Positions 4,192-26,900 of a stretch of DNA of 29,495 nucleotides are shown here, one piece after another; position 1 is the first letter of the stretch; every line of letters starts with the position of its first letter. The notes beneath the pieces are model-generated. The model was not told where the DNA came from and ran no database searches. It worked only from the letters and a program-made list of their open reading frames with translations. Origin of the DNA: a virus; IMG/VR virus record IMGVR_UViG_3300035670_000986, positions 1 to 29,495 of that record, one strand, 5' to 3'. A program made the translations under genes and the position numbers.

Positions 4192-4387
4192 CGATGAGTT
4201 GATTGCTTTGTGGGACGCACGTTATGGCGATGGCTGGCGTATCTCACATTTAGAAAGCATAACGCTTGCGTGGGATGACACTTTTGATGTTGCGTTTACC
4301 AGAGAAATGTCACGCAGAGGATTGATTGAAAGACACCATCACATGGCCGAGCAAGTAACCCTGTACAAACTAAAATGCAAATCATAG
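4058..4387 (+). CDS. Hypothetical protein nested at its 5' end in the HNH gene
   Basis: A protein of about 109 residues, function unknown. The frame is open from 3974 and the true start is uncertain. ATG 4058 has a good AAGGAG 5 bases upstream but overlaps the HNH gene by 134 bases. ATG 4118 gives an 89-residue protein with less overlap but no clear Shine-Dalgarno site. The globular part appears to begin near TTASNDELIALWDARYGDGW and continues to RGLIERHHHMAEQVTLYKL, a short alpha/beta protein. The Ser/Thr-rich N-terminus implied by the 4058 start looks like out-of-frame HNH sequence, which favours the shorter product. It overlaps the helicase start by 13 bases and is probably part of the same operon. 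Confidence 0.6.
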   Translation: MTKKASTVVVSTSITPTPFVMEELPVKETQDSDSQIKIWLTTASNDELIALWDARYGDGWRISHLESITLAWDDTFDVAFTREMSRRGLIERHHHMAEQVTLYKLKCKS

Positions 4388-10635: not shown

Positions 10636-10852
10636 CCCAATCATCCCGTGGGAGCATATCCCACGGGGAGGTGGCTTCTTCATCCCTACGCTCAACCCAC
10701 AACAAACGATTGAGCAAGTCTTTCGCTCAGCAACTGAGCACCATATCTTTTACGTCAAGCACACCACGTGCATTGTCAACGGGCGGCTAGGCGTTTATTT
10801 TCAGAGACAGCAGCTATCATATCCTTGGCAAAAGCAATCCGCTCAGCCCTGA
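10598..10852 (+). CDS. Small hypothetical protein overlapping primase 3' end and convergent giant gene
   Basis: An 84-residue protein from ATG 10598 (the frame is open from ATG 10577). It overlaps the primase gene by 38 bases and runs 77 bases tail-to-tail into the 3' end of the giant minus-strand gene. It looks genuine rather than a shadow. After an unstructured start it reads WEHIPRGGGFFIPTLNPQQT, then a helix, then IFYVKHTTCIVNGRLGVYFQR. 'IPxGxxFFVPTL' followed by a helix and a short beta pair ending 'NGRLGV' is a pattern I recall in tiny phage proteins near replication genes. No function is known. The hairpin at 10645-10667 lies in its coding sequence. It could be a chance frame, hence the moderate score. 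Confidence 0.55.
   Translation: MQSESQCQKSKTDPIIPWEHIPRGGGFFIPTLNPQQTIEQVFRSATEHHIFYVKHTTCIVNGRLGVYFQRQQLSYPWQKQSAQP
10645..10667 (+). terminator. Perfect hairpin at the convergence of the two operons
   Basis: CCCGTGGGA (10645-10653) pairs perfectly with TCCCACGGG (10659-10667) around a GCATA loop, 10 bases after the primase-helicase stop. As a near-palindrome it can form on either strand's RNA, so it could terminate rightward early transcription and also leftward late transcription arriving from the giant gene. Neither side has a clean T tract, which argues for a weak or factor-dependent terminator, or an RNA-stability element. It is also read as codons of the small gene at 10598-10852. The rest of 10636-10775 holds only that small gene. 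Confidence 0.55.
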
Positions 10853-13800
10853 TCTCATCAAGCTCTTTGCGCTTTTGCGCAGGGGTCATGCCCGGATCTT
10901 CACGCACGATACGTTCTTCCTTGGCAAGATCACCCATTTTTTTCTTGAAGCGCCCTGCGTCTTTAGTCAGGTCAAGCAGGTACTCATTTTCTTTGTAAAA
11001 GATGTCTGCGTCTGCTTCACGTCCTGTGGCTTCAAGTTCCTTGAGCGTACGCTGGCGTTGCTGAATGTCATACACCTGCTCATAGGCGAAGTTGATAAGG
11101 CCCGTTGCGTCTTTAGGCTGGAACAGCCCACCAATCAGAATCGTACCGCTAGCGCGTGTCTCAGGTTTAACCTTGGTCGGCTCCTCAAGCACAGGGTTAG
11201 CCACACTCATCAGCGCAGGCACAAGCCCACCGAAATATCCGCGCATCAGGTGGTCAATCTCGATGGGAGACAGGCCGTATTCTTTAGAACCAACAGTGAC
11301 TGTGGTCATCTTGCTGAGCAGCTTGGACACTTCTGTGGTGTTCTGGCGCACACGTTCTGCTTTGGTCAAATCAAGCTCACGCTCACTCTCAATCGCCCGT
11401 CCACCAAAGAAGGAGTAATTCACAGCAACTTCAAGTGCTGGCTTGATGAACTGCGGCAGTCCAATAGGTATGCTGTTAACGACCATTGACTTGAGCGCAG
11501 GGATGTTTTTCTGCAACGTTTCATCTGTGGTCGCCATGTTGTACACCATCTCTGGCAGCGACTTAAAGATATAGCCAAGTTCAAACGGAATGGGTACGCG
11601 CAGAGGCTCACTGACACCGGGGATATATACAAAGAAGTTGTTGTACTTCTCATCAGCCGGTGCGTTCTGATACGCCTCATCGTCCTGCATCAACATGGCA
11701 TAAGCTATGGCAGTAGCGGCAAGCATCGCGCCACGTGTCATTAACTTCTTACGCACATTGAGTTGATCCTGCCCATACATCTTGCCAGTGAAAGCGCGGT
11801 ACACCACGTCCAGACCTTGTATCTGTGCGTTCATGAACGGCACTAACATGCTCAGCATATAAGCTGTTGGGGAGTACCCACGCCGTCCGAAGTTCATTGA
11901 CTCCAGCGCACCGAGGGTGGCTTCCATCTCCGACATACCTTTGGCACGGAAGTCCTCGTACAGTGTCATACGTGTGGCAGCATCTGCCTTCATCGACAGC
12001 TCGTCCAGACGTGCAAGCTGGAAGTTCAGGGTCTTGCCGCCTTTAGCCAGATCACGCAGCAGCTTCGCCATATCTTCTGACGAGCCTGTAATAGTCTGAC
12101 CACCAAACACTCCACGTTTTTTCAGTATCTCCTCAACATTGCTTGTGCCTTTAACCATTGAGGGGAACTGTTTGATTGCCGAGTACACAGGCGTAATGTC
12201 AGCGCCAGTCACCAACGCCGCTGCACTGGTATCCCGCACAATCTGACGCAACATATACACAGGGTTACGAGTAACAAACTTACGTAGTACCTGTGCTGGA
12301 CCTGTAAACATCCGTGCCATAAACGGCAGCGTCATTGATACGCCCTCAAGCCCTTTGACCAAGATACTTGCGTCAATGCCAAGCTCGTCAAGCTTCTCCT
12401 CGCTAAGCACGGCTGACTGCGTTTCTCCGTTAACTTTAAAGCGCACGACGTTCGGACCTTCAGGCTTAGCGTCAGGCTTAATCTCAGCAAACCCCAGCGC
12501 TTTGAGCGAAGTTGCCACACGGCTTGACGCTAAGTTGCGCAGGGCCATGTCCGTCAGGATGGTGGTGTTCTGAACCGAGCTGGTAAAGAAGTCAACGATG
12601 TGCTCGTTCCCACCAACAAGTTCACGTAGGTACGGCTGCTCTTTCAAGCTGCCAATATTGATGGGCACATCTTCTGTACCAATGCTTAAGAACACCTGTT
12701 CCTTCTTCTCATCAACACGGTAGAAGGGGATGTAGTCTTTGGTAGCGTTGAGTGTTTTTGCAAGATCTTTGGAAATAGCGCCCGTAGCCTCAAGGAAGTT
12801 GATGAGGTTCTTGTTGTACTCGTTGTATTGAGTACGTGCTTTTTCAAAGGCGTCTTTGATCTCAGGCTTGGAGTTGATGTATGCGTCAACGTCCTTCAGC
12901 ATGTCCACCGAGATACCCCCCTTGGCGGGATCCGTATTAAAGTTCAGCTTGCGCAGCCCCACGCTTGGGTTGTTCTTAGCGCGTTGGTGGGCCATGTAGG
13001 TTGTAAACAAACGGTTGGCAGCGTCAGCGTCAATGCCTGACTCGCGCAAAGACTCAGAGATCTCGCGCAGACTTACGCCAAACCCAGCCTCTGGGATGAA
13101 CTCCATACTGCCGTCAGCTTTGGGGCGCTGCACCATCTTCATACCGCCGTGGTTGACCACAGCAGACGTAAAGTTCATGCGCTGGTCGTGCATCCGTGAG
13201 TAGTACACAGCCTCAAACATCTGCTGAGCTTGTGCCAGTTCGTTGTCCTTGGCGTACTTGAGCACTTGCTCAAGCGGATCTAGCCTGTCCACAAACCGCG
13301 CTCTAAACTCTCCACCACGCAGGGTATTTTTTAACCGCTCAACAACACCTTGCTCAGCGCCCGTGATTCGCTGAACAGTGTCCGCAACATTGGCAGGCAT
13401 ATCAGCGGGGTAGTTGACCGAGAACAATACTTTAGGCGTTGTGCCTTTTGTGCCCAGTACGTCTTTAACACCTTCTTTAAGGTCACTTACTTCTGCGGCT
13501 GTAAGGATTTGCTGGTTTTTATCGTAGAAGTTAACGTAGTTAGCAGCTTTTGCGCCTTGGTGTTTATTGCCTGCAATTCCGTAAGACCAGAGTAATTCAG
13601 CCGTTGCTTTTTGTAATTGAGTGTGTGCCGCCCCTTCTCGAAAATACGGGTCTTTTGCAGAAGCAATAATAAGTTTTTTTCGATCACTAGTGCTGCTTTT
13701 GGAAGCACTACCAAACAAAGGCTGTTGCGCGTATAAATACGCAGGAAATAAATTTGCAGCAAATAAACGGTTGTTTTCTTTGTCAAGCAATTCTTTTAAC

Positions 13801-16800
13801 ATGGCAGCATCTTCAGGATTCGCCAAATCATTTAACAACGCATCAAAAGAGTTTTGTACGTGTTTGGATTGTTCGCTTAGCGGTTTTTCTAGTTCCCAGT
13901 ATTCATCTTCTTTACGCTCACGAATAACGCGTTTTAGATACGTGACAGGTTTGTTTTGAATCACTTCGTATTCAAACGAAAAATCTTTTAAAATATTGTA
14001 CAGCTCTTTAAAAGATATATTGTTATAAGTAGTAATACTTGAACGCTCTTTTAGTTCTCTGAACAAAGCATTAACAAGCTCAGTTTTGTCGTTTGAAATT
14101 AAAGCATCGTATAGATCTTTTCTTTTATATTCCTTCCCAAACTTAACAGCTAAAGCAATATAATCTGAAATCTCGTCAGCTATTTCGCTAATAACATTTG
14201 ATTTATTGCGTCTTTCACGATTTTCAACGCTAAGAGTATTTAGCCAATTGTCAAATGCCTTGTCTCTTATGGCGGACAGCTCTGCACGCGTTTTTCCATT
14301 AAATTTAACGCCTGTCTCTTTATCAAATTTTATTTCGGGCGTACGGGCTATTTTTTTCTCTAATTCTTGTCTAGCATAACTAAGCGCAGTCCCCGGTCTA
14401 GTAGCCGTGTACGTGCCCCACATATACGCTTGCATACCTTCGCCAGTGCCCATGTATGAATGGTCGAACTCTTGGAACGTAACCCCCGTGCCATGCCATT
14501 CACCACGCAGTTCAAAATCAGCAGCACCGTACGCAAAGTCCACAAAATCTTGCGCGGTCATGTTCTTAATTTGTTTGGCAAAGTCAGGCCCAAGCAACTT
14601 GCCAATAATCTTCTTGAAGTTCTCGTACAGGCGGTACAAGAAACCTGCGACTGGGCCTTTACCTTTTTCTGTGGGGTTAACGCCAGCTATAACAGCTTCT
14701 TCTACAAAATAAGCAAGTATCTCGTCATCACGTGTTTCAACATCAGGTGTTTCATCTGCAAACGCATAATTAACGCGCTGCATGGCTGCTTTAGCAATCT
14801 TGGATTCTTGTGATCCGTCGCCACGCTTAGCCCAAGTCTCAACCTGATTAACAAGCGCTTTGTATTGCGCATCGCCCAACATATTACGGAAGCCAACGTG
14901 CGCACCTACCTCATGGAGGAATACCGCAAGCTCTTGTCCTTTTGGGATATTGCTGGCGATTAGATACACTTCGCCATACGGTGTTACGAAACCACGAGCG
15001 TCAGTTGGGACGTTGTAGTATTCGCCAATGTTTTTCCCAAGAGATTTAACGTCAGGGTAAACGTATACGTTTTTGTTATCCCAATCGGTTACTAAGGGGA
15101 ATGCCCCTTGAATAACTTTACGAACCTCTGCAACCGTCGTTGGGTTTTCTACCTGCCCACGTGACTTCAGGATGCCCTTGCGTTCAAAGTACGCCCTTAC
15201 GCTCTGCGCTTGCGGCACATTTTCAAGCTCAGACATATGCGCCATTGCATTACGTCTTGCATCGCGCAGAGCACGTGCGTATTCCGCACTCTTAAACCCA
15301 TAATCTTTAGCTGCCTTCTTAACATCAGGCGCTGAGTAAGACATGGCATCAATTTCATATTGCAGCTTGGCTGCTTCTGTGGCCCGTGTCTTTGGCGTAC
15401 CTTTTGGCTTGTTAAAGTTTTCATCAATGATGGCAGCAATACGCTCGTTAGAAGCATTAATCAAGGTTTGAATTTCCTTGATGGCTTCCAGACGATTGTC
15501 TTTAGCCGTTATGAGCGTGTCGCGTAGTGGTCCTTCAATTTTAGTTTTCTTACCTTTTGCAGCAAGCGCTTTATCGATGGCTTTGATCTCGTTTTTGTAT
15601 ACGCCTACTTGTGCAGCAAGCTGTTCTTCAGAAATGCGGGGGATGGATTTATCTGCACGTACCGTACCCATCCTAGCGTTTTCAAGTGCTTGGGCAAGTT
15701 CAAGCGCCTGAAGGTCAACATTGCCGCCTGTGGCCTCAAATATTTCTTTTTGCTCAAGCAGTAATTTCTTTGTCTTACCCAACCGAGCGCGTTGTGCGCC
15801 TTTGGCCTCGGCAATTTGTTTATCAATATCTTGAATACGCTGCTCGTATTTTTGTTTTTCCTTTTCGGTAGCTTCTTGAACTCTGCCAAGCTGTGCTTTC
15901 TCAAGCGCTTCTAAATTAAACGGCGCAGCAGTAATGGGTTGCACATCAAGACGTTGAACAGGTTGATCTTGCAGTATGGCAAGGTCTTGCCGAAGCGCTT
16001 CCATTTTGCCGTAAAGCGCAGCCATCTTACTTGTAGCTGGACCTACCTTATCTTGTTCTCCCTTCTCAACTTGTTTCTTAAGCTTGGACAACTGACTACG
16101 GATGTTCTTAACTTCGCGGTCGTACTTCTTCTTAAGCTCAATCGTATCTTCGTCAGTTTCAACGACAACGTCCTTACGTTCAACTTTTGTTCCCGGTAAC
16201 CCAAGACCAACCTTGACGCCAACTTCAGCTTCTTTAGTTTTAGCGCGGAGGTCGGCTATCCTACGTTGCGTAGTTTCAAGTATTGCGATATTGCGTCGAG
16301 CAATGGCTTGAGGTTGTGCAGCTTTACGTTCGGCCACACGTGTTTCTTTTTCTGCTTGAAGCGATTTAAGTAATTTTATTTCAGCTTGCAAACGCTTGTT
16401 TACAGCAACTTCAGCGTTTGCTAAAAGTTTATCCTCCGTAGCCGGGGACGCTTCTTTAATCTCATTTCTCAAAGCTTCTAAGTCAGAACGCAGGTCTGCA
16501 AGATACGCGTCCGCTGCTGCACGGTCTTTATCAGGGATATAGTATTCAGCGCGGTTTGCTTTCTCAACAATCGACTTGTATTGTTTTGTTTTAGCTGCAA
16601 GTTCTTGTGACACAGCTTGCGCAATTGTTTGAAGATCCTTTAACCCTTCTGCATTGATGCGCTTGATAGCATCTTGTTGCACCTGTGCAGCAGTCTTTGC
16701 AACATCTTTACCTATTTCGGTAATTAAGCGATCAAGATTTTTTTCTGAAGTTGCGTCAGCAACTTTTCTGTCCTCAACAACAGTTTCAATTTTTCTCTTA

Positions 16801-19800
16801 GCGTCGTCTAATTGCTTACGCATATTAGAAACTTTTAGCGACCCAAGAAAACGCATAAACGCTTCTGGGGTTTTACGTATAGTTGCGCGAGGCTCAAGTA
16901 GTTTTTCAGGAAACAATTCTCTTTGTGCCCCGCCAACTTCTGGCGCAGCAGGTACTTCTTCTTTTTCCTCAGCAGCAACTGCTGCTTTACGTGGTGCAGG
17001 CTCAATCCCCGGCAGCGTAAACTGCTCACCGGGAATAAACGAACGAGCTGGACGTGCCTCACGTGCCAACGCTTTATCACGAATCTCTGCAAGTTCTTCT
17101 TGCGTCACAAATAGCGCACGTGCAAATGGACGTGCTGCCTGTGTGCCAGCCTTCATATCAAAAGCAAGCTGCTCGCGGGTGATGTTCTTACTGGGTGTAA
17201 AGCGTGGTAATTCTTGTGGCCTACGGCTTTCTTCTACAACTTTTTCGTAACGTGCGCTACGGATAACTTTGCCCTGCCGCATCACAGCAGGCTCGACAAG
17301 TATTTCAGACACTTTACGGGTCACAGGGTCGTACTCTTGCGCCCGGATCATCAGCTCGTCCATCTTTTTGGCAAGCTGTTTAGTTAACGCATTGCGTTCT
17401 TCAGGGGTAACTCCACGCACCCCTTCTGCACGTCGTGCAGCATCAATTTCATCGATAGTATTAGTAATGTAGTTGTTACGGTACGTTACAGCTTGCTGAA
17501 GTGCATCTTTACGTTTTGCAAGTGAATCTTTCTTAAACTGTTCAAACGTAGGCATCATGTATTCCTGCCCACGCGCTGCGGCTTCTTCAGCCATTGACGA
17601 TACGTAGTAACGATACCCGCGCTCAGTCTGCCCTAGTTTTGTCTGACGTAACTCATCAAGGGCAGAAGCAAAATTACTAAACTCCTGATCCTGACGACTC
17701 TGTGCATCTTTAATAGACTCACGTGCTTTTGCCCCGCCAACCTTGACCTTGGCTTTAATCTGCTCAATTTCTGTATCACGCTGAGTAACTGTTTGCAGTG
17801 CAGTGTCATATCGTTGTTGTGCTGCGGCAAGTTGTTCTTCGCTAGCTTCAGGCTGCGCAGTGAGCGCGTCAAGTGCTGTCTTGGCTTCTTGTGACTGCTT
17901 AACTGCCGCATCACGTTCCTTCTGAAGCTTGGCTATACGCAGTGCGTCATCGCCACGAACTAACAACTCCTCAGCAGGTGCCCCGAGATCTTCAACGCGC
18001 TTCTCAGGTTGATTCCGTTTGAGCGTGTCTAACTCATTGATTCGTACCTGTGTAGCAAACGCCTTCAAACCATCAGGCGTAAACGTATTGTCAGGCGTTA
18101 CAAGTTGCTTATCTTCTGCAAGATAACTCTGTAATTTCTCACGCTCTTGTGCAATACGCGCTTCAATCTGATCAATAGACTGAAGCCCCAGTGACTTCTT
18201 TACAAGCGGCGATAGTTCACCTGTACGAACAGCGTCCATATACTGGGCACGTTCTTCGGGTTTTGTCAGCCCTAGTGCACGGAGACTTACAGGACTATCA
18301 AGCGAACGCTCCACACGCTGGAGGGCAATGTCTTCAGTTTCTGCCGAACCCATCATGAGCTTGGCTAGTTGTTTTACATCACGGCGAGCTTGTTCTTCCG
18401 CAGCACGTGCTTCTTCCCCACGCATCTTTTCTTGGCGCTCAGCCATGCGCCCTTCCAAGGTTTCTGCTGTCTTAACGGGGGGCAGCTCTGCTTGATAACC
18501 AGTGTCAACTTCTTCTGCTGTACGTTCTGCACGTCTGGTTGCTTCAGGGTATGCAAACCCTGCTGGCGTTTCCATGAACAGTTGTTCACCACCAACCTGC
18601 GGTGCTTGCGCTTCAAGCCGCTGACGTTCAGCGCGTAGCGTTTTAATTTTCTGCGCAAGTTCTCCAGCCTTTTGACTTTCGCCAAGCTCGGCTTGCTTTT
18701 GCATATTCTTGAGCAGCTTAGCTTCTTCAGCCTGTAGTGCCTTGAGCGCTTCCATCGGATCAGGCACAGCGTTAATAGACGCTAGCTGTTCTTCAATCTG
18801 TTTACGCCCTTGGATTAATGGCGATAGTTGCTGGCTCATTGCCGCAACAGCATCCACGTCACCCGTCTGCGTAGCCTGTGCAATTTGTTTTTGGTAATCC
18901 TCTATTGCGCGAGATACACGCGCATAGTCTTGCTGTAACTCTTGGGTTTCTTGTGTGCGATCTACAACAGGCGCAGGAGCCTGCATTTGCGGCCCTGTCA
19001 CAGCAGCTTCAGCTAAATCTAAAGCTCGTTGGTCCGCAGCAAACAGAGGCACCCCTGCTTCTTCTGCACGACGTTGGCGGTCTGCAAGCTCTGCCGCTTC
19101 AACTTTGCCCCTTTCTTCTTCAGCACGTCTACGTGCAACTTCTTGCTTTATCTTTGTTTCAGCCCGTGCCTGTTCACTACCACGCTCAAAGTATCGACCT
19201 ACTGGAGATATAGCGCCGCCCAGCACTGCACCGCCAATAAAACTGTCCACGTACTCACGACGTGCGTCAGCGTCTGCAATCTTTAAGCCAGCTTGTAAAC
19301 GCTCAATAAACTGCTGGCCTGTTTCTGTAACACCTTCAATCCCGGCAGTACGCGCACCTGTCGCAGCGTAGTCTGCAAGGACACGCTTATATCCTTGCTT
19401 AGCTATTTCTTTAGCTTCGGCTTCTGTAAGTTCTTTACCAACGGACTTAAATAAGTTACGGACAAGTGGCAGCGCACGGAAACTAACCACATCAAGCGCA
19501 GCTTGCGGCACAGCCGCAATAAAAGCAGTTGCCCCACTGGTCTGCTCTAGCCCCGCGTTGGGATCAGTACGTTTGACTTCTTCAAGCTGCCTTGCAAGGT
19601 TTGATCCTGTGAATTGCGCGGCAGAGGTAAGCCCTGCGGCTGTACCGGCAGCTAACGTACCAAGCGTTAATCCACCAACAACAGGAGCGGCAGCGGCAGC
19701 GGCGGGTAAAGCAAGCGTAGCCCCGGCAGCGGCAAGCGGCGCCGCCATATAGGGTAGTGATCCACCTAGCGTTTCTTTAAACTTTTCAAAAGGAGCTTCG

Positions 19801-20090
19801 GTCCAACTTTTTTCCGTGGGCCTATATATGCGTTGTGCTTCAGCCTCACGCTCTGCCTGATACTTCTCTGCTTCAGGCAAACCCATCAAACCTAGTTTAC
19901 CCGCTGTAAGTGCTGCCTGCCCTTTTAGTGATTCAACGCCTGCTTTAAAAGCAGGTAAAAATCCGCTTTCGCCTTTAGGTCCAAACTCAGGGTATTTGGC
20001 AATAATACGGCGCTTAGCTTCTTCTGGCGTTACGGAATCCGGAATGTTTTCAACCAGCGTTCCGTCGGGTAAGCGTATGGAATAAGCCAT
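10776..20090 (-). CDS. Giant 3104-residue polyvalent virion protein with zincin-like, ADP-ribosyltransferase-like and LPD38-like domains
   Basis: The largest gene, last in the leftward operon, 2 bases after the preceding stop. Regions: residues 1-40, an N-terminal module (SIRLPDGTLVENIPDSVTPE); 110-160, an Ala/Gly-rich hydrophobic segment; about 310-1640, long Glu/Lys/Gln/Ala coiled coils; HEVGAH at 1726-1731 (HExxxH, zincin-like); about 1862-2195, an ADP-ribosyltransferase-like domain starting WHGTG (His1866), with MGTGEGMQAYMWGTY and closing NYVNFYDKN; and about 2200-3104, an LPD38-like region with hydrophobic helices (GAMLAATAIAYAMLM). Polyvalent proteins of phages and conjugative elements are predicted to enter the cell with the DNA and protect or reprogram it. 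It is probably packaged and ejected. No methylase, protease triad or lytic transglycosylase domain was recognised. Confidence 0.9.
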   Translation of the reverse strand: MAYSIRLPDGTLVENIPDSVTPEEAKRRIIAKYPEFGPKGESGFLPAFKAGVESLKGQAALTAGKLGLMGLPEAEKYQAEREAEAQRIYRPTEKSWTEAPFEKFKETLGGSLPYMAAPLAAAGATLALPAAAAAAPVVGGLTLGTLAAGTAAGLTSAAQFTGSNLARQLEEVKRTDPNAGLEQTSGATAFIAAVPQAALDVVSFRALPLVRNLFKSVGKELTEAEAKEIAKQGYKRVLADYAATGARTAGIEGVTETGQQFIERLQAGLKIADADARREYVDSFIGGAVLGGAISPVGRYFERGSEQARAETKIKQEVARRRAEEERGKVEAAELADRQRRAEEAGVPLFAADQRALDLAEAAVTGPQMQAPAPVVDRTQETQELQQDYARVSRAIEDYQKQIAQATQTGDVDAVAAMSQQLSPLIQGRKQIEEQLASINAVPDPMEALKALQAEEAKLLKNMQKQAELGESQKAGELAQKIKTLRAERQRLEAQAPQVGGEQLFMETPAGFAYPEATRRAERTAEEVDTGYQAELPPVKTAETLEGRMAERQEKMRGEEARAAEEQARRDVKQLAKLMMGSAETEDIALQRVERSLDSPVSLRALGLTKPEERAQYMDAVRTGELSPLVKKSLGLQSIDQIEARIAQEREKLQSYLAEDKQLVTPDNTFTPDGLKAFATQVRINELDTLKRNQPEKRVEDLGAPAEELLVRGDDALRIAKLQKERDAAVKQSQEAKTALDALTAQPEASEEQLAAAQQRYDTALQTVTQRDTEIEQIKAKVKVGGAKARESIKDAQSRQDQEFSNFASALDELRQTKLGQTERGYRYYVSSMAEEAAARGQEYMMPTFEQFKKDSLAKRKDALQQAVTYRNNYITNTIDEIDAARRAEGVRGVTPEERNALTKQLAKKMDELMIRAQEYDPVTRKVSEILVEPAVMRQGKVIRSARYEKVVEESRRPQELPRFTPSKNITREQLAFDMKAGTQAARPFARALFVTQEELAEIRDKALAREARPARSFIPGEQFTLPGIEPAPRKAAVAAEEKEEVPAAPEVGGAQRELFPEKLLEPRATIRKTPEAFMRFLGSLKVSNMRKQLDDAKRKIETVVEDRKVADATSEKNLDRLITEIGKDVAKTAAQVQQDAIKRINAEGLKDLQTIAQAVSQELAAKTKQYKSIVEKANRAEYYIPDKDRAAADAYLADLRSDLEALRNEIKEASPATEDKLLANAEVAVNKRLQAEIKLLKSLQAEKETRVAERKAAQPQAIARRNIAILETTQRRIADLRAKTKEAEVGVKVGLGLPGTKVERKDVVVETDEDTIELKKKYDREVKNIRSQLSKLKKQVEKGEQDKVGPATSKMAALYGKMEALRQDLAILQDQPVQRLDVQPITAAPFNLEALEKAQLGRVQEATEKEKQKYEQRIQDIDKQIAEAKGAQRARLGKTKKLLLEQKEIFEATGGNVDLQALELAQALENARMGTVRADKSIPRISEEQLAAQVGVYKNEIKAIDKALAAKGKKTKIEGPLRDTLITAKDNRLEAIKEIQTLINASNERIAAIIDENFNKPKGTPKTRATEAAKLQYEIDAMSYSAPDVKKAAKDYGFKSAEYARALRDARRNAMAHMSELENVPQAQSVRAYFERKGILKSRGQVENPTTVAEVRKVIQGAFPLVTDWDNKNVYVYPDVKSLGKNIGEYYNVPTDARGFVTPYGEVYLIASNIPKGQELAVFLHEVGAHVGFRNMLGDAQYKALVNQVETWAKRGDGSQESKIAKAAMQRVNYAFADETPDVETRDDEILAYFVEEAVIAGVNPTEKGKGPVAGFLYRLYENFKKIIGKLLGPDFAKQIKNMTAQDFVDFAYGAADFELRGEWHGTGVTFQEFDHSYMGTGEGMQAYMWGTYTATRPGTALSYARQELEKKIARTPEIKFDKETGVKFNGKTRAELSAIRDKAFDNWLNTLSVENRERRNKSNVISEIADEISDYIALAVKFGKEYKRKDLYDALISNDKTELVNALFRELKERSSITTYNNISFKELYNILKDFSFEYEVIQNKPVTYLKRVIRERKEDEYWELEKPLSEQSKHVQNSFDALLNDLANPEDAAMLKELLDKENNRLFAANLFPAYLYAQQPLFGSASKSSTSDRKKLIIASAKDPYFREGAAHTQLQKATAELLWSYGIAGNKHQGAKAANYVNFYDKNQQILTAAEVSDLKEGVKDVLGTKGTTPKVLFSVNYPADMPANVADTVQRITGAEQGVVERLKNTLRGGEFRARFVDRLDPLEQVLKYAKDNELAQAQQMFEAVYYSRMHDQRMNFTSAVVNHGGMKMVQRPKADGSMEFIPEAGFGVSLREISESLRESGIDADAANRLFTTYMAHQRAKNNPSVGLRKLNFNTDPAKGGISVDMLKDVDAYINSKPEIKDAFEKARTQYNEYNKNLINFLEATGAISKDLAKTLNATKDYIPFYRVDEKKEQVFLSIGTEDVPINIGSLKEQPYLRELVGGNEHIVDFFTSSVQNTTILTDMALRNLASSRVATSLKALGFAEIKPDAKPEGPNVVRFKVNGETQSAVLSEEKLDELGIDASILVKGLEGVSMTLPFMARMFTGPAQVLRKFVTRNPVYMLRQIVRDTSAAALVTGADITPVYSAIKQFPSMVKGTSNVEEILKKRGVFGGQTITGSSEDMAKLLRDLAKGGKTLNFQLARLDELSMKADAATRMTLYEDFRAKGMSEMEATLGALESMNFGRRGYSPTAYMLSMLVPFMNAQIQGLDVVYRAFTGKMYGQDQLNVRKKLMTRGAMLAATAIAYAMLMQDDEAYQNAPADEKYNNFFVYIPGVSEPLRVPIPFELGYIFKSLPEMVYNMATTDETLQKNIPALKSMVVNSIPIGLPQFIKPALEVAVNYSFFGGRAIESERELDLTKAERVRQNTTEVSKLLSKMTTVTVGSKEYGLSPIEIDHLMRGYFGGLVPALMSVANPVLEEPTKVKPETRASGTILIGGLFQPKDATGLINFAYEQVYDIQQRQRTLKELEATGREADADIFYKENEYLLDLTKDAGRFKKKMGDLAKEERIVREDPGMTPAQKRKELDEIRAERIAFAKDMIAAVSENKRLAAR
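13506..14507 (-). other. AT-rich ADP-ribosyltransferase-like domain segment inside the giant gene
   Basis: This stretch encodes about residues 1862-2195 of the giant protein. It opens with the HGTG...FDHSYMGTGEGMQAYMWG signature recognised in phage polyvalent proteins as an ADP-ribosyltransferase-like domain and closes with NYVNFYDKNQQIL. Base composition drops sharply inside it: by hand count 13981-14220 has 70 G+C in 240 bases (29%), against 35 in 60 (58%) at 12901-12960 in the same gene. The core (13741-14360) is Lys/Asn/Ile-rich, unlike its flanks. This suggests a domain acquired by recombination, or a fast-evolving insert within the ART fold. Confidence 0.65.
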
Positions 20091-20092
20091 GT

Positions 20093-21706
20093 TTAGATAT
20101 TGCCAAAATTAATGACACGTTGTCCAGAGGCGCCCGTCGCCCCACCAACATACTGCTTCTTCCAATCAGCATAATCAGGAAATGGTTTGTCGCGTGTTTT
20201 GCGATCTTCCATATGGGCTTGTCTAGCTTTATTGTACTCACGTACAAGTGTATCTTCGTCTAGCCCACCAGCAGCTCCAGTGCCACGTCTCATTTGCAGT
20301 ATGTCAGTAATTGGTTTGCCCGTCTCTTTTGCAATCATCTGCAATGTACGGAACTCCGGAGGCGGCATTTTGGCAACACGTTCCTGTACATCAAGTGAAG
20401 CCTTAGAAATAGCTTTTCTAGTCTCATCGTCCATCGTCTGCCATTTATCCTGCATCGCAAGACGCACCGCTTCACGACGTTCAATAGACGCAAGCTCCTT
20501 TTCCTTCTCCAACTCAGCAGAAGAACCTTTAACCAACTCAATAGCTTCCGCACGACGCGCACGTTCAATGGCAGACTGCATCTGGTTCATCGCCATCTTA
20601 TAGGTGCGATCTTCTGCACGTTGCGCTGCCACATCTTTGCCCAACGCCTGTGCAGCCGCACCAATTGCTCCTTTACGTGGCGCAGCAGCATACGCACCCA
20701 ATGCGTTCGCTAAAGCACCAAGTCCAGCAGACTCGCGCTGTTTCTTGTATTCCTCTTGCATTTCCTTAAGACGCGCTTCTTCTGCTTCACCACCAAGTCC
20801 TGCAACACCCATTTCTTTAAGCGCGTCCCGTCGTCCTTGGATAATGTCTTTTAAACTACGTTGCTGATATTGCGCAGGTAAAAATTGAGCCAATGGGTCA
20901 GTTCCGGGGGCTGCATTAGCCTCCATCATTTGATTTTGAATTAACTCTTCTGGTGAAATAGCAGGAACATTTGGCCCTGTCGGTAACGCGGGTTGTGCCC
21001 TTTGCCCACCCAGAGCGCGTTGGGGGGATGGTGTAGCGGCGGAGGGGGGTGCTGGGCGATTACGGAAAGTAAAATCAGGTCCAGATATATCTTGAGTATA
21101 AGAGGGCATACTTGCAGCGGGAGCTTTTGGAGGAGGTGGAACATTCCCTAACAGCCTTGCACGAATGCCGTTTGCTCGTCGTATTTCAGACGGTGTAGCG
21201 GTACCTTCTGCAATTTTCTGTTCAATTTCTCGCAAAATATCGCGCTCATCTTTTGAGCTAGCGCTTATAAGTGATTCGCCAAACAACGAGCGATCTTCAG
21301 GGGGACGCCCTGAAATATTCATACGCGGTGCTCCCCCAACCAAACTGCCGTCAGTAAGCCCCTGATAACGCTCAACACGCCCACCATCTTCAAAAGCAAC
21401 AATCCCCCCACTAGCAAACCCTCGCTCCATGTTGGGCGCGGGTAGTGAAGCTACACCTTGCATTTGCGGAGGTGGGGCTGGAGGACGAAAAGCTTGTTCA
21501 ATACCTTGCTTAACAGTGGGTTGTTGTTGCGGATTTTGTTGCATAGCAGCAGATTGTTTGGCATCTTGCTCCATCTTTTTTCGACGTTGCAATTCACCCA
21601 GCGCAATGTAGGGCGGCACCTCGGGGTTGGTTCCGTTGGCATACTGCATAACAGCTTGAAGGGGCATCCCCTTCAAACGCTCAGAAATTTGAATAAGGTT
21701 AAGCAT
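20093..21706 (-). CDS. Virion-associated protein, Gln/Ala/Pro-rich with coiled coil
   Basis: A 537-residue probable structural or ejected protein. The N-terminus has a short helical module (MLNLIQISERLKGMPLQAVM, then NPEVPPYIALGELQRRKKM), followed by a Gln/Pro-rich linker. Next comes the Gly-Gly element FASGGIVAFEDGGRVERY, a short motif I recall in many podovirus virion proteins. Residues about 110-290 are Pro/Ala-rich and disordered. The region from about 290 to 460 is helical with Ala/Arg/Glu coiled coil (AEEARLKEMQEEYKKQ, RARRAEAIELVKGSS). The C-terminus ends GASGQRVINFGNI. It starts 2 bases after the upstream TAA and is followed 2 bases later by the giant gene. Its role is inferred from the operon; an internal virion protein or scaffold is plausible. 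Confidence 0.8.
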   Translation of the reverse strand: MLNLIQISERLKGMPLQAVMQYANGTNPEVPPYIALGELQRRKKMEQDAKQSAAMQQNPQQQPTVKQGIEQAFRPPAPPPQMQGVASLPAPNMERGFASGGIVAFEDGGRVERYQGLTDGSLVGGAPRMNISGRPPEDRSLFGESLISASSKDERDILREIEQKIAEGTATPSEIRRANGIRARLLGNVPPPPKAPAASMPSYTQDISGPDFTFRNRPAPPSAATPSPQRALGGQRAQPALPTGPNVPAISPEELIQNQMMEANAAPGTDPLAQFLPAQYQQRSLKDIIQGRRDALKEMGVAGLGGEAEEARLKEMQEEYKKQRESAGLGALANALGAYAAAPRKGAIGAAAQALGKDVAAQRAEDRTYKMAMNQMQSAIERARRAEAIELVKGSSAELEKEKELASIERREAVRLAMQDKWQTMDDETRKAISKASLDVQERVAKMPPPEFRTLQMIAKETGKPITDILQMRRGTGAAGGLDEDTLVREYNKARQAHMEDRKTRDKPFPDYADWKKQYVGGATGASGQRVINFGNI

Positions 21707-21708
21707 AG

Positions 21709-23970
21709 TTAGCCACCATAGTACGTAAACCCGCCAGGACCGGATGTTCCCCCAAGGCTTTCAAGCGAAGTGCCTGAAAACAAATCGCTGATGTCAAAAC
21801 CAGCATTCTTTAAGTTTGCTGCAATCGACGCTAGCCCCGCAGCATTCTGAAGTGCGCTTGGGCCTTGTTGATAATACTGAGACGTAGCGATAGGGAGCCC
21901 CTGCATTAAACTTTGGCGCAACTTAAGCATTTCCATAGGATACTGATACTGTTCACGTTGAAATTCTGCTCTGTCTCTATCAATAGCAGCTTGGCGAATA
22001 GCTTGTTCTTGTGCCCCCATACCGTACATGGCTTGTAAACGAGAAATATCTCCAGCCTGCCCTTGGAGCCCTATATCTGCCAAAGCACGATTTGCAGCAA
22101 GCTGTCGATCAAGCGCGGATAGCCCGAGCTGTGCCTGTTGCTGCTTTGCCTGTTCTCCCAAGCGTTGTGCTTCCAAGCCATACTGTGCTGTTTGCTGCGC
22201 AGACGTCATACCTTGTTGGGCTCCAAACTGACGAGATTGTTCACCTAAACGCAAACCTTCTAAACCATACTGCGCAGCCTGCTGTGCAGCCGTCATGCCT
22301 TGTTGCGCACCAAACTGGCGCGATGCTTCCGCAGCACGTTGAGCGTCGAGTCCAAATTGCGCAGCCAATTGTGCAGCCGTCATGCCTTGTTGCGCACCAA
22401 ATTGTTGTGCTTGTTCTCTAGCTCTTGCTGCCTCTAACCCTAGCTGACCCGCTGTTTGTGCAGAACTTAATGCTTGCGCTCCTGCTGCTTGACGTGCAGC
22501 TTCCTGGGCTGTTAATGCTTGTAACCCTAACTGCGCTCTTGTTTGAGCTTCTTGAGAAGTTAATCCCGCACCAAATTGTTGTGCTTGTTCTCTAGCTCTT
22601 GCTGCTTCTAATCCTAATTGGCCCGCTGTTTGAGCAGATGCTAGTGATTGTTGACCTGCTGCCTGACGTGCAGCTTCCTGGGCTGTTAATGCTTGTAACC
22701 CTAACTGCGCTCTTGTTTGAGCTTCTTGAGAAGTTAATCCCGCACCAAACTGCCCAGACTGTTCCCTAGCTCTTGCTGCCTCTAACCCTAGCTGACCCGC
22801 TGTTTGTGCAGAACTTAATGCTTGCGCTCCTGCTGCTTGTCTAGCTGATTCCGTTGCTGTTTGAGCTTGAAGCCCAAGTTGAGCGGCTAATTCAGCCGAC
22901 CGTGCACCAAGCCCAGCACCAAACTGACGAGATTGTTCTCCAAGCTGCTGTGCTTCAAGTCCTTTTTGTATATTTAATTGCTGCGCCGTAGTACGGCGAG
23001 CTTGATCACGTTCAAATTGTTGTTGAGCATTTAAGAAAGCTTCTTGCTGCCCTTTGCCGTAAATATCCCCCAATTGCGTAGCAAGGTTGCGATTAAGTTC
23101 AGCTTCTGAAATAGCCTGACGTGACCCTCCAAACGATCCAGCTTTTGCCATACGAGCGGCATTTTGCATCCGAGTGATGTCTGCCTGCCTACGAGCTTCA
23201 CGCAACTGTGGATCAATAACTCCTTCTGTATAAGGAGACATATATTCTTGAGCTTGCGCTTGTCCGAATTTTTCAGCAGTAGCTCTTTCTGGGGTAAACG
23301 TACCCGCTTGATAAGCCGCTGGAGCTTGATAATTTGAAGTAACCGCATTTGCTTTATACAAATCCCCCGGAGCTTGATAAGTGCTTTGAATATTTGTTCC
23401 CGTATAAGGCGCAGTTCCTTGGTATGTAGATCCTATAGCCCCAGCTTTATACAAATCCCCCGGCGCTTGATAAGTGTTTTGAATATTCGTTCCCGTATAA
23501 GGCGCAGTTCCTTGGTATGTAGATCCTATAGCCCCAGCTTGATAAATATTGCTAGGAGCTTGATAGCCACTTTGAACGTTTGTGCCTTGATACGCAGTCG
23601 GCGAGGTAAAGCCGGACGTAAAATTTCCAGGAGTAAAAGCTGTGGGGGCATTAAACTGATTGCCAAAAGTACCTGCTGTATACGCAGCGGGGGCATTAAA
23701 TTGATTGCCAAAGGTGCCTGCTGTATATCCTGAACTAACACTAGTAGCAGGAGTCTGTAAATTTGATATTGCCGTTTGTGTACCTGTCGGAACCGTTAAC
23801 GATCCTATGCCCGTAAGCGCTGTAGTTTGGGGGGTGGTAAACCCTTCCGATAACGGTTTGTCGTACGAAGTGTATGGCAAATTAGCAAACGCCTCACCTT
23901 GTTGAAGCAAGCGTTCAACATAAGGCCCAGCCCATGAAGATAGCGTTGAAGATACAGTTGAGTCAGCCAT
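21709..23970 (-). CDS. Repeat-built virion protein, beta repeats then 29-residue helical repeats
   Basis: A 753-residue protein of unknown exact role. The N-terminal 55 residues (DSTVSSTLSSWAGPYVERLL onward, YTSYDKPL) match the start of phage tail or ejection proteins by general impression. Residues about 70-230 consist of 15-16 residue units (YTAGTFGNQFNAPAA; YTGTNIQNTYQAPGD), arranged partly as exact 31-residue tandem copies. A helical part follows with REARRQADITRMQNAARMAK, then about 353-613 of tandem 29-residue Ala/Gln-rich helical units. The C-terminal 100 residues are again unique and end GGFTYYGG. CGAGGTAA just before the ATG is the ribosome binding site. No Cys or enzyme motif was seen. 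It may be a length-setting or elongated structural component. Confidence 0.82.
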   Translation of the reverse strand: MADSTVSSTLSSWAGPYVERLLQQGEAFANLPYTSYDKPLSEGFTTPQTTALTGIGSLTVPTGTQTAISNLQTPATSVSSGYTAGTFGNQFNAPAAYTAGTFGNQFNAPTAFTPGNFTSGFTSPTAYQGTNVQSGYQAPSNIYQAGAIGSTYQGTAPYTGTNIQNTYQAPGDLYKAGAIGSTYQGTAPYTGTNIQSTYQAPGDLYKANAVTSNYQAPAAYQAGTFTPERATAEKFGQAQAQEYMSPYTEGVIDPQLREARRQADITRMQNAARMAKAGSFGGSRQAISEAELNRNLATQLGDIYGKGQQEAFLNAQQQFERDQARRTTAQQLNIQKGLEAQQLGEQSRQFGAGLGARSAELAAQLGLQAQTATESARQAAGAQALSSAQTAGQLGLEAARAREQSGQFGAGLTSQEAQTRAQLGLQALTAQEAARQAAGQQSLASAQTAGQLGLEAARAREQAQQFGAGLTSQEAQTRAQLGLQALTAQEAARQAAGAQALSSAQTAGQLGLEAARAREQAQQFGAQQGMTAAQLAAQFGLDAQRAAEASRQFGAQQGMTAAQQAAQYGLEGLRLGEQSRQFGAQQGMTSAQQTAQYGLEAQRLGEQAKQQQAQLGLSALDRQLAANRALADIGLQGQAGDISRLQAMYGMGAQEQAIRQAAIDRDRAEFQREQYQYPMEMLKLRQSLMQGLPIATSQYYQQGPSALQNAAGLASIAANLKNAGFDISDLFSGTSLESLGGTSGPGGFTYYGG
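22220..22915 (-). repeat. 87-bp helical repeats with a 174-bp higher-order period
   Basis: Copies of the same sequence start at 22220, 22307, 22394, 22568, 22742 and 22916 on the plus-strand numbering: 87-bp steps, then 174-bp steps. They encode 29-residue units such as QFGAQQGMTAAQQAAQYGLE plus nine more residues. The 174-bp units (22394-22567 and 22568-22741) are nearly identical at DNA level, so recent tandem duplication or gene conversion is likely. 29 equals 11+11+7, a spacing that can form a continuous coiled coil. Diverged copies extend to about 22133. Confidence 0.9.
23351..23741 (-). repeat. 93-bp and 45-bp tandem repeats encoding 31- and 15-residue units
   Basis: Two nearly identical 93-bp copies (23351-23443 and 23444-23536) are followed by a partial third from 23537. 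Further upstream in the gene, a 45-bp duplication lies around 23644 and 23689. All steps are multiples of three and keep the frame. The units share a Tyr-x-Ala-Gly / Tyr-Gln-x-Pro pattern of 15-16 residues, so the 31-residue unit is a pair of basic units. This is a coding tandem repeat: copies are directly adjacent with no unique spacers, so it is not CRISPR. Confidence 0.88.
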
Positions 23971-23972
23971 AA

Positions 23973-26900
23973 TTACCTCGGTATAAATTTAGCAGGATTT
24001 ATTTGTTTTCCCTGTTTTTTATTGCCTGTTCTTGCAACGCGAATGCGATCCATCATCTGGTACAACACTTTAGCTCCAGCGTTGGAATTACCGTTACCTA
24101 AATGGCTTACCACATCGGCAGGAATCACAAACTCACCATCACTAAGTGCAGCAGGGCGTCGTCCATCAATACTGGCAGGAACTTTATCAGCCATACCATC
24201 TGAATGTCCACCTAAATACCTTGGGGATAGCGTACGCCCACCCCGCGTCATTGCCAATCCAGCGAGTCCACCTTGGTTATACCCAGCCACAATGTCATCA
24301 ATTAATCCACCCGAAGCACCGCCGGGAGCGTTGATTGTTTTACCGCCCAAGTTATAAACAGTACCGCCATATTGCTGGGCGGCTTGGTCGGCTTCCTGCT
24401 GCGTGTCGTACCAGGAATAAGTTGGCGTTCCAGACATGCTTGGCGTTCTGACAACAAATTGTCTTGTGACGTCTCCAGCCATTTGCGGGGAGAGTGTTGC
24501 CAAGTTCTCCGATGTTGCGAGATCAAGTCCGAGCTTTTGTGCAAGTGCTTGAGATGCTGCAAGGCTATCCGTGGCTCCTGGCCCTTTTTGCGCGGCAAAC
24601 GGATCTTGCGTCCAGTCGTATGCGGCGCCAAGCTTATTTGCGGCAATGTCAGCAAAGTTAACACCGTGGCCTGATCCGGTGCCAGGGTAAAGCTGTCCAG
24701 GCTTATAGTTAATGCCAGCAGCGTCAAGTTTTTGACCTAACGAACCAATGCCGCCGAGGTTGATGCCAAACTCATTCGCATTTTTGTAAAGGTCCTCGGC
24801 ACTGACAATACTTCTTCTCAGCCGATTACCCTGAGGGTCGTAGTACCCAAGCTCGCCATCTTCCATGGATACGCCATAACCGCTCTTGGGGTCTCGGTAA
24901 ATATAAGGGTTACCTGTCTTGGCAAACCAATCCTCATCGGCCAGAGGTGGCGGATTCTCGTAAGCATACTTGGCGGCAGCGGCTTCGGCGTTAATGCCCT
25001 TCATGGTCTCGTTAAGCCAGTTGGTGTCCTTGCCGCCGTAATAGTTTGCTATGTCACGGTTCCACCAATCGTTGGGGAAGGCAACCTTTAGTGCTTCGAC
25101 GTTGTTGAGGAATCGATCCTTGCGAAGCTGCTCTGACCGCAACCCTGCCTGTGCATATTCTTCGGCTGTCATTGGGACGACATTCTCAGATACGCTTTGG
25201 GCAATGTCGGCCACTGAGCTTGGTATCGACTTAGGCTCTATAGCGGGTTGGGCCGTCTTGACGGTATTAGTGACGCCTGGGACGGCTGTTGATGCCCCCG
25301 CAACAAACCCTGCTCCTTCATATCCTGCCGGAGGTGTATACGTGATTGGCCCAAAACGCTGAAAGTACGGATCTTCAAAATAATCGTAGTCTTTTGGCGG
25401 GGCAGTATATGTACGTGATGCAGTCCACGGCTGCTTTAAGTTAGGGTTATACCCCGCATCGCCTTTGCCTTCTCCACCAATATTTTTAAAGATTGAAGGA
25501 AGTGCAAGTAAACCAACATTAACTTCGCACTTCCCCGTTTTAGGGTTAAGTGAGTATCCAGTTGGACACGTTTCTGGTTTTGGCTCACATAAACCAGTTG
25601 TGGGGTTGCGTACTTGTCCTTCTGGACATGATGTTGATTTAGGCGTCTCACATAAACCAGTTGTGGCATTGCGTACTTGTCCTTCTGGACAAGTAACAGG
25701 CGTATCAATAACAGGCGTCTCGCACAAACCCGTTGTGGCATTGCGTACTTGTCCTTCTGGACACGTAGACGTTACAGTAACACTAGGCCTACAAAGCCCT
25801 GTATCAGGATCGCGTGTTTGTCCTTCTGGACATGCTGTTGATTTAGGCGTCTCACATAAACCAGTTGTGGGGTTGCGTACTTGTCCAGCAGGACAAGTAA
25901 CAGGCGTATCAATAACAGGCGTTTCACATAAACCCGTTGTGGCATTGCGTACTTGTCCTTCTGGACAAGTTTTTGTTGTTGTAACTTCTACTTTAGGCGT
26001 CTCGCATAAACCCGTTGTGGCGTTGCGTACCTGTCCTTCTGGACAAGTTTTTGTTGTGTCGTCTGTTACAACAGGCGTATCAATAACAGGCGTTTCACAT
26101 AAACCCGTTGTGGGATTGCGTACTTGTCCAGCAGGGCAAGTTTTTGTAGTTGTAACTTCTACTTTAGGCGTCTCACATAAACCCGTTGTGGCATTGCGTA
26201 CCTGTCCTTCTGGACAAGTTTTTGTTGTTGTTGTTGTTGTGGATAAAATAGGCGGATTAACAATATCTGTGTCCCCGGTTAACGACGTCCCTTTTACAAC
26301 TACCGAGTCGTTTCCTAAACTACTGAGTAAAGAGTCATTCCCCGCAATGATGTCCTGAATTAATCCATCATCATCAAAATATCCGGGTATGAGGTCTTCT
26401 AGCTCAGTATCACTAAGTTTTGTACCAGGAACTTTTACATTACTGAGCGCACCGCCCACAAAACTAACTGCGGAATTACGTAAAACATCTTGAGCATCGC
26501 CCCCAGCAAGTGCCGTTGTTACCCCTGAAGTAATACTACTTTGAACTCCGTTTAACACACGGTTTGCTGTTTGGGGGTTTAGATCTAATCCAAGCGTTTC
26601 ATCTAGGCTGTCAACAATTGAACCGGCAACATTTTGAATAACTGGTCCTGCTATTGCGTTAAACGCAGTCCCACCGATTGTAGCTATCGCAGCTTTAGCG
26701 CCGTCCCCTCCAAGAAGTTCAGCGGTGCCTGCATTAACCGCAGAAGCTACAAGTGTTTTAGCAACAGTTACCTCAGCCCCCGTTAAACCTAACTGAGAAA
26801 CAATCTGATTTGTAACGGCTTCTGTTACAGGCTTAGTTATTAAACTTGTTGGATTTGTGATGATATTAGCTGCTTCACCAACAGTAAGATTTGAAGCAAG

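What the first reader, a model, noticed from the sequence alone, without database searches (positions are those of the whole stretch)
10776..20090. 3104-residue polyvalent protein as a candidate injected effector
One gene takes nearly a third of the window and joins a hydrophobic segment, very long coiled coil, HExxxH motif, ADP-ribosyltransferase-like domain and LPD38-like region. Polyvalent proteins in this style are predicted to travel with phage DNA and act on the new host, yet few have been tested. The domain order here is worth comparing across phages.
Basis: partly seen in the sequence, partly recalled or inferred. Interest (0 to 1): 0.7.

Follow-up and report, generated by a model that had tools for sequence, protein, structure and literature searches.

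The report
Phage delivery protein with swappable cargo
A bacterial virus carries one giant protein that probably rides inside the virus particle and enters the host; its middle part, a predicted cutting enzyme plus a predicted host-modifying enzyme, has been exchanged among related viruses while its tail end stays alike.

Summary
The gene is real: minus strand, 20090->10776, 3104 aa. LPD38 is over its Pfam cut-off. ART-PolyVal is below its cut-off, but profile comparison supports an ART with candidate triad H1866-Y1894-D2190. The HExxxH zincin is supported by a further conserved glutamate (E1790) and a profile match to N4 vRNAP. A long charged arm is present; a heptad coiled coil is not shown. 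The ~865-aa C-terminal module occurs in at least 586 matched stretches of viral contigs, usually behind a conserved run of genes. A Burkholderia podovirus homologue shares the module; its counterpart in phage JC1 was found in virions by others. The injected-effector reading is supported but untested for this phage. New point: the ART sits at one junction between zincin and C-module, and in relatives is present, absent or replaced. Cargo follows the zincin tree (3 changes, 0 of 500 shuffles as low), not the C-module tree (8 changes). In two pairs (L079/L084, L014/L111) both flanks are alike while the zincin-cargo block differs. The N-terminal arm is variable too (150 of 181 pairs under 45% identity), so only the C-module is constant. 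I read this as a delivery protein with an exchangeable protease-effector block: a new member of the polyvalent-protein kind.

The parts
10776..20090 (-). whole giant gene, 3104 aa, ATG at 20090, stop 10776-10778
19971..20090 (-). aa 1-40, small N-terminal segment, of several types among relatives
   Evidence: N-terminal sequences
19611..19754 (-). aa 113-160, Ala/Gly-rich hydrophobic stretch, candidate membrane segment (limits by eye)
   Evidence: hydropathy scan
15201..19163 (-). aa 310-1630, long charged arm, probably helical (coiled coil not shown); variable among relatives
   Evidence: weak period; variability
14571..15173 (-). aa 1640-1840, zincin-like metallopeptidase domain
   Evidence: profile match to N4 vRNAP C1, 97.3%, E 2.1e-11; E1790 68/70; lethal factor rows Z 4.7-5.0
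14898..14915 (-). HExxxH, aa 1726-1731
14721..14723 (-). E1790, candidate further zinc ligand
   Evidence: 68/70 rows
13461..14543 (-). aa 1850-2210, ADP-ribosyltransferase (ART-PolyVal-like) domain with a long internal insert; present in some relatives only
   Evidence: presence/absence
14493..14495 (-). H1866, candidate ART triad residue
   Evidence: invariant in five rows of A3
14409..14411 (-). Y1894, candidate ART triad residue
   Evidence: invariant in five rows of A3
13521..13523 (-). D2190, candidate ART triad residue (NYVNFYD)
   Evidence: invariant in five rows of A3; exact residue uncertain
10779..13373 (-). aa 2240-3104, constant C-terminal module
11169..11681 (-). LPD38, aa 2804-2974
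20093..21706 (-). 537-aa gene just upstream (P0003)
   Evidence: homologue upstream in 52 of 55 loci with at least 1.2 kb of flank
21709..23970 (-). 753-aa Ala/Gln-rich repeat protein (P0004)
   Evidence: hit in 44 of 44 loci with at least 3 kb upstream
23973..27440 (-). 1155-aa protein with Cys-rich repeats (P0005)
   Evidence: hits in 37 loci
27443..28081 (-). 212-aa protein (P0006), weak collagen-like minor tail hit
   Evidence: hits in 5 loci
28078..29493 (-). virion structural protein, runs off the record (P0007)
   Evidence: phrog_3287 E 1.5e-49; PDB 9nwi_Y 'Capsid and scaffold protein', six chains, E 1.4e-11; hits in 3 loci

Best explanation
The gene encodes the large ejection-type protein of a probably short-tailed phage. 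The constant LPD38-bearing C-module, with the long N-terminal arm and its membrane-prone stretch, is the delivery part: packaged in the head, then passed into the new host with the DNA. The middle is a block that is exchanged between phages: a zincin and, here, an ADP-ribosyltransferase. After entry the zincin most likely cuts the chain near itself and frees or activates the ART, which modifies a host protein early in infection. Shown from sequence: gene, domains, conserved candidate residues, neighbourhood, block exchange. Shown by others for a homologue: presence in virions. Inferred: short tail, ejection, self-cleavage, ART activity and target.
For: LPD38 hit. ART: profile match, conserved H/Y/D in five rows, fold rows PARP and MbcT and a cyanophage A4 pre-ejectosome chain, phage proteins named ART-PolyVal-like in BFVD. 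Zincin: E1790 in 68 of 70, motif in 69 of 69 against 16 of 1380 shuffles, profile match to N4 vRNAP domain C1, 97.3%, E 2.1e-11 (four negative comparisons 0.1-1.3%). Context: P0003 homologue upstream in 52 of 55, P0004 hit in 44 of 44 (0 hits in 3889 shuffled frames); P0007 matches a solved virion protein. C-module homologous to BcepMigl gp69 (E 9.9e-18; 98.0%, E 1.5e-13, 678 columns); JC1 counterpart in virions (PMC9144972). Block exchange: ART needs 3 changes on the zincin tree (0 of 500 shuffles as low) against 8 on the C-module tree (shuffled mean 9.5); alike zincins in 9 of 9 ART/ART and 0 of 48 ART/none pairs; two pairs with alike flanks and unlike middle.
Against: No virion, injection or enzyme data for this phage. 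ART below the Pfam cut-off as a single sequence; of five ART pieces of other loci scanned, L036 passes, L028 is below, and L014, L039 and L076 give no ART-PolyVal hit at E 0.1. The third catalytic residue is uncertain: canonical relatives have F[DN][DE], the window FYD. The window shows no portal, capsid or terminase among the proteins scanned, so tail type is inferred from relatives (terminase Pfam hit in 10 of 12 records, 6 over cut-off). The C-module model is poor (pLDDT 64.2, pTM 0.51) without PDB match. P0003 and P0004 profiles do not find counterparts in four annotated phages (best E 0.21). The N-arm is not constant: under 45% identity in 150 of 181 pairs. N4 vRNAP is packaged uncleaved although it has a zincin (PMC5512222 section 8). 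Pairs are not independent.
Confidence: 0.6

Rival explanations
1. The giant is mainly a structural ejectosome component, like T7 gp16 or the C-terminal domain of N4 vRNAP. Its zincin and ART are degenerate or structural and do little in the host.
For: The motif of the zincin is in 69 of 69 giants but only 9 of the 69 have the ART-length gap; one ART (L119) looks degenerate at its strand-5 motif; a cyanophage A4 pre-ejectosome chain heads the fold list.
Against: E1790 kept in 68 of 70 beside the motif; H/Y/D of the ART kept in the five aligned; repeated exchange of the block fits selected activities better than filler.
Confidence: 0.2
2. The zincin is itself an effector against host proteins and the ART is a second, independent effector; no self-processing happens and the two travel together only because they are neighbours.
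For: 53 of 69 giants have 180 aa or less between zincin motif and C-module, so no room for a cargo there; the zincin is thus kept without one; PMC5512222 section 8 lists this option.
Against: Cargo type follows zincin type, as expected from a cognate processing pair, but simple linkage predicts the same; not decided here.
Confidence: 0.3
3. Tape-measure protein of a long-tailed phage.
For: Great length, charged arm, hydrophobic segment.
Against: Annotated phages with the C-module include HTVC010P, which has a head-tail connector and tail tubular protein B, and the module is shared with the gp69 type of the podovirus JC1; closed frames vary from 1959 to 3427 codons, in the arm as well as the middle (zincin position 953-2179).
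Confidence: 0.04

Closest known systems
Phage-type polyvalent proteins (Iyer et al. 2017, PMC5512222)
   Same: Giant protein near late virion genes; zincin incl. HEXXXH form, HYD-type ART, LPD38, which the paper lists as phage-only
   Different: Figures and architecture files were not seen, so I cannot say whether this exact order was drawn there; exchange of zincin plus cargo as one block is not in the sections I read
DarB-like protein gp69 of BcepMigl / JC1 (Bcep22-like podoviruses)
   Same: Homologous C-module, HExxH motif upstream of it, after virion-associated genes; JC1 protein with LPD38 found in virions
   Different: 4515-4658 aa; the JC1 table lists transglycosylase-like, COG4646, YtxK and HepA hits; P0003 profile does not hit the upstream gene gp68
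N4 virion RNA polymerase gp50 (PMC12633501)
   Same: 3500 aa, predicted membrane-spanning N-terminal domain, cargo enzyme, zincin-motif domain C1, large helical C2; homologous zincin; ejected with two smaller operon partners
   Different: Cargo lies before the zincin, not after it; C-terminal region not detectably homologous to the C-module (0.2%)
Cyanophage A4 pre-ejectosome chain 9k3a_B
   Same: Top fold row of the zincin-ART model, Z 9.2, 171 residues, rmsd 4.3; A-4L gp27, to which I assign the chain by residue numbers, has an HGT...GxGTYF motif
   Different: No sequence similarity found (0.1-0.7%); no HExxH motif in gp27; which part of the model gives the match was not shown
T4 Alt
   Same: Head-packaged, injected ADP-ribosyltransferase (as described in PMC5512222)
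   Different: R-S-E class, not HYD, not in a polyvalent protein

Membership tests
Phage-type polyvalent protein | two or more domains of disparate activity in one polypeptide | tested here: met
   zincin, ART and LPD38 in one frame
Phage-type polyvalent protein | gene near late virion genes | tested here: met
   P0007 virion structural in the same run; run kept in relatives
Phage-type polyvalent protein | delivered into the host with the DNA | not testable with these tools
   only a homologue's counterpart in virions, by others
LPD38 (PF18857) | score over curated cut-off | tested here: met
   94.7 bits against 27
ART-PolyVal (PF18760) | score of the single sequence over curated cut-off | tested here: not met
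   15.5 bits against 31.2; relative L028 15.9 bits
ART superfamily, HYD type | H in strand 1, Y in strand 2, D in strand 5 | tested here: inconclusive
   H1866, Y1894, D2190 invariant in five rows; which strand-5 acid is catalytic is unsure
ART superfamily, HYD type | profile similarity to accepted members | tested here: met
   hhalign 99.7%, E 4.6e-27 to six pieces, one of which (L036) passes PF18760; control 0.4%
ART superfamily, HYD type | ART fold | tested here: inconclusive
   model pLDDT 76.6, pTM 0.70; PARP and MbcT rows Z 4.6-7.6, with an unrelated anti-CRISPR at 5.7; BFVD ART-PolyVal-like rows E 1.5e-8 and 1.0e-6; Foldseek in PDB none at E 0.001
Polyvalent zincin, HEXXXH form | two His, Glu base, further Glu in the next helix | tested here: met
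   H, E, H 70, 70, 69 of 70 (rows placed by that pattern), E1790 68 of 70
Polyvalent zincin, HEXXXH form | peptidase activity | not testable with these tools
   none
N4 vRNAP-like protein | single-subunit RNA polymerase domain | not tested
   no direct search; no RNA polymerase family in the Pfam scan of the whole protein
N4 vRNAP-like protein | homologous C-terminal domain | tested here: not met
   0.2% against six schitovirus C-terminal regions

The most novel reading that the evidence does not exclude
These genes are delivery proteins with a standard rear end: the C-module is the packaging and ejection part, and a block of a protease with its matched effector is exchanged as one unit in front of it. 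The matching of zincin type and cargo type means that each protease is built to release its own effector inside the host.
Probability: 0.3. Interest if true: 0.75.

Novelty: new member of a known kind. Interest (0 to 1): 0.5.

Why it matters
Polyvalent proteins were predicted in 2017 to carry effectors into the host, with the zincin as a possible processing enzyme. The co-inheritance of zincin and cargo, and the two pairs of giants whose flanks are alike while that block differs (L079/L084, L014/L111), give a natural comparison that isolates the block and makes the processing idea testable. The constant C-module is a candidate for the packaging and ejection part.

Tried and rejected
Homology of the C-module to the N4 vRNAP C-terminal region: tested with N4 alone (0.5%) and with six schitoviruses (0.2%); not found. 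Sequence homology of the ART to cyanophage A-4L gp27: not found (0.1-0.7%). Solved relatives by sequence: nothing below E 0.4 for the C-module or zincin-ART. Foldseek of both models in PDB: nothing at E 0.001; the second look for the C-module listed mainly helical rows at its C-terminal end, Z 8.0 at most. NCBIfam: nothing for five proteins at E 1. The other cargo (L092, L094, L109, L113) has no family over cut-off in the two scanned, L094 and L113 (L113 had Kinase-PolyVal at 16 bits against 27). In genome contigs 3 of 50 candidate stretches encode relatives, so prophages look rare at that sensitivity. Coiled-coil periodicity: weak. P0003-P0007 profiles in four annotated phages: best E 0.21, one domain at 0.0018. 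No tRNA; promoter-like sites no more than in shuffles. Rows dropped before counts: of 106 frames matching the C-module, 98 are at least 1500 aa and 69 are non-redundant; the window was added as row 70 for the trees. The window's copy L002 and L004 fell out as redundant; L003, L006 and the window are near-copies. In one search five rows (L055 type) were measured from a second HExxxH; searches use the first. The C-module tree is a quick one, the zincin tree a careful one; L028, L099 and L111 have long branches.
Full report
What is there. The window is itself a 29,495-base virus record. On the minus strand one frame runs from ATG at 20090 to a stop at 10776 (3104 aa). Upstream on the same strand lie five further genes: P0007 (28078-29493, open end; phrog_3287 virion structural, E 1.5e-49; PDB 9nwi_Y, E 1.4e-11), P0006, P0005, P0004 and P0003, whose stop codon ends 2 bases before the giant's ATG. 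The plus strand holds genes of DNA polymerase, helicase and primase families.

Domains. Pfam finds LPD38 at aa 2804-2974 (E 9.5e-27, over cut-off); phrog_18222, of unknown function, covers aa 2421-3090 (E 1.1e-36). ART-PolyVal appears only when the piece is scanned alone and stays below cut-off (E 0.03, 15.5 against 31.2 bits). Five related ART pieces (A3) share H1866, Y1894 and D2190. A set of six more distant pieces (A5) includes L036, which passes PF18760 (34.3 bits); of the other ART pieces scanned there, L028 was below cut-off and L014, L039 and L076 gave no such hit at E 0.1. The profiles A3 and A5 match at 99.7%, E 4.6e-27; an unrelated pair gives 0.4%. PMC5512222 (section 9) describes the polyvalent ART as H-Y-D, which agrees; but canonical relatives read F[DN][DE] at strand 5 and the window FYD, so the exact acid is uncertain.

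Zincin. A HExxH or HExxxH lies before the C-module in 69 of 69 non-redundant giants, against 16 of 1380 shuffled sequences. In the 70-row alignment H1726, E1727 and H1731 are kept in 70, 70 and 69 rows, partly because rows were placed by that pattern; E1790, not used for placing, is kept in 68. The family profile matches the HExxH domain C1 of N4 virion RNA polymerase and four schitovirus relatives (97.3%, E 2.1e-11); four unrelated comparisons gave 0.1-1.3%. The HEXXXH form was already described (PMC5512222 section 8).

Structure. The zincin-ART piece was modelled with pLDDT 76.6 and pTM 0.70. Foldseek found no PDB match at E 0.001. The second-look aligner listed the cyanophage A4 pre-ejectosome chain 9k3a_B (Z 9.2, 171 residues, 4.3 A), then MbcT (7.6), many PARPs (mostly 5.7-6.2, one 4.6) and lethal factor (4.7-5.0), with an unrelated anti-CRISPR protein at 5.7 and further unrelated rows from 4.5 down. 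Only the first is above the 7 to 8 that the tool calls a typical best Z without a clear match; the run of ART and zincin structures agrees with the sequence result but does not prove it. In BFVD, proteins named ART-PolyVal-like match at E 1.5e-8 and 1.0e-6. The C-module model is poor (pLDDT 64.2, pTM 0.51) and has no match in PDB (mainly helical rows).

Relatives. tblastn finds parts of the C-terminal ~700 aa in 130 of 50,697 phage records, all under 60% identity (Vibrio 105, Bacillus 13, others); the 40 rows listed cover 17-49% of the 1505-aa query. In genome contigs 3 of 50 do. From the held loci 69 non-redundant frames of at least 1500 aa were compared; the 59 closed ones are 1959-3427 codons. 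In Pelagibacter phage HTVC010P about half of the module (profile positions 336-728 of 835) matches a 504-aa protein of its own (E 1.5e-33).

Neighbourhood. Of 55 loci with at least 1.2 kb upstream, 52 have a P0003 homologue on the same strand; of 44 with at least 3 kb, all 44 have a P0004 hit; shuffled frames give 0 of 3889. In a few loci one frame is hit by both profiles, and P0006 and P0007 are seen in only 5 and 3 loci; many flanks end before that point. In BcepMigl, Vibrio phage 1.232.O and Achromobacter CF418P1 the giant also follows virion or unnamed genes on the same strand, though P0003-P0007 profiles do not recognise their proteins (best E 0.21).

Virion evidence from others. JC1 gp69 (4515 aa; LPD38 at 4195-4401) was detected in CsCl-purified virions with 51 unique peptides, 15.6% coverage (PMC9144972, passages). 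I did not compare JC1 itself; its paper groups it with the DarB-like proteins of Bcep22-like phages, and I tested BcepMigl gp69, which matches the C-module (E 9.9e-18; 98.0%, E 1.5e-13, 678 columns).

Block exchange. The distance from HExxH to the C-module is 180 aa or less in 53 of 69, 181-400 in 3, 401-700 in 9, over 700 in 4. The 9, and the window, hold the ART (one, L119, looks degenerate); the 4 hold a different sequence with an AGT[PT]WCT motif. On the C-module tree the ART label needs 8 changes, all 8 forced by well-supported branches, against a shuffled mean of 9.5 (42 of 500 as low); the other cargo needs 3 (mean 3.9). On the zincin tree, built on 90 residues before to 115 after the motif and so short of the ART, the ART label needs 3 (0 of 500 as low), all ten lie in one 14-row clade (100/99), and the four other-cargo rows form one clade (93/98). 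Among 181 pairs whose C-modules are at least 62% identical, zincins are alike (45% or more over 150 aa or more) in 9 of 9 ART/ART, 1 of 1 other/other, 63 of 112 none/none, 0 of 48 ART/none, 0 of 10 other/none and 0 of 1 ART/other pairs; the pairs are not independent. Along the sequence, L079 and L084 are 75-92% identical over aa 151-1650, 33-42% with large gaps over 1651-2400, and 86-96% from 2401 on; L014 and L111 are 86-100% over 1-1650, 26-48% over 1801-2400, and 63-85% after that.

Limits of that picture. The N-arm (about 490 aa before the zincin) is under 45% identical in 150 of the same 181 pairs, and 60% or more over at least 300 aa in 10. So the arm is exchanged or diverges too, and only the C-module is constant across the family; the clean replacement of the middle rests on two pairs. 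Four rows of the ART-bearing zincin clade have no ART.

How it probably works. By analogy with N4 (PMC12633501; abstract, passages and Discussion seen) the giant would be the largest of a set of ejected proteins, P0003 and P0004 being candidate partners. After entry the zincin would release or activate the ART, which would modify a host protein early on, as T4 Alt does. Steps after packaging are inferred. The coupling of cargo to zincin supports a processing pair but is also what close linkage alone would give.

Novelty. LPD38, HYD ARTs, HEXXXH zincins and the processing idea are in print (PMC5512222). A full-text search for LPD38 gave 8 papers: two I opened (PMC5512222, PMC9144972), an Edwardsiella paper that I did not open (PMC12779148), and five that by title are on other subjects. 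Domain swapping between ejection proteins is known in principle (PMC8954989, passages). I saw no report of zincin and cargo exchanged as one block in the listings and the passages I read; figures and supplementary files were not seen, most listed papers were not opened, and the A4 structure paper is not held (known only from a reference list). Other papers seen only as passages: PMC9503650, PMC10386132, PMC12810830, PMC11654794.

Noticed in passing
window 23973-27440 (-): The 1155-aa protein has Cys-rich repeats (TCP[EA]GQVRN.TTGLCE) from aa ~408 on that score over the Pfam cut-off for CBM_14, a chitin-binding peritrophin-A domain (E 1.6e-10; TCP positions); it may be a true relative or a composition match.
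   Followed up: no
window 27443-28081 (-): The 212-aa protein has weak matches to BclA_C (8.9e-06, below cut-off) and TNF and to a collagen-like minor tail family.
   Followed up: no
window 21709-23970 (-): The 753-aa protein is made of near-repeats of Ala/Gln-rich, probably helical units; a profile hit lies upstream in 44 of 44 relatives with enough flank.
   Followed up: partly
L126 (Anabaena phage A-4L) gp27, residue 1426: An HGT...GxGTYF motif like that of ARTs in a protein that may be the chain of the solved A4 pre-ejectosome: possibly an ART already visible inside a phage head.
   Followed up: partly
L092, L094, L109, L113, between zincin and C-module: A second cargo, gap 809-998 aa, with an AGT[PT]WCT...GDF.IYY motif; the two scanned have no family over cut-off.
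   Followed up: partly
L111 aa ~1660-2470: Close to the ART-bearing L014 on both flanks, but its block holds two HExxH-type motifs and no ART motif by pattern: perhaps a second kind of zincin as cargo.
   Followed up: no
first ~40 aa of the giants: The N-terminal segment comes in several unlike types; window against L006 is 61% over aa 1-150 but 95% over 151-300.
   Followed up: no
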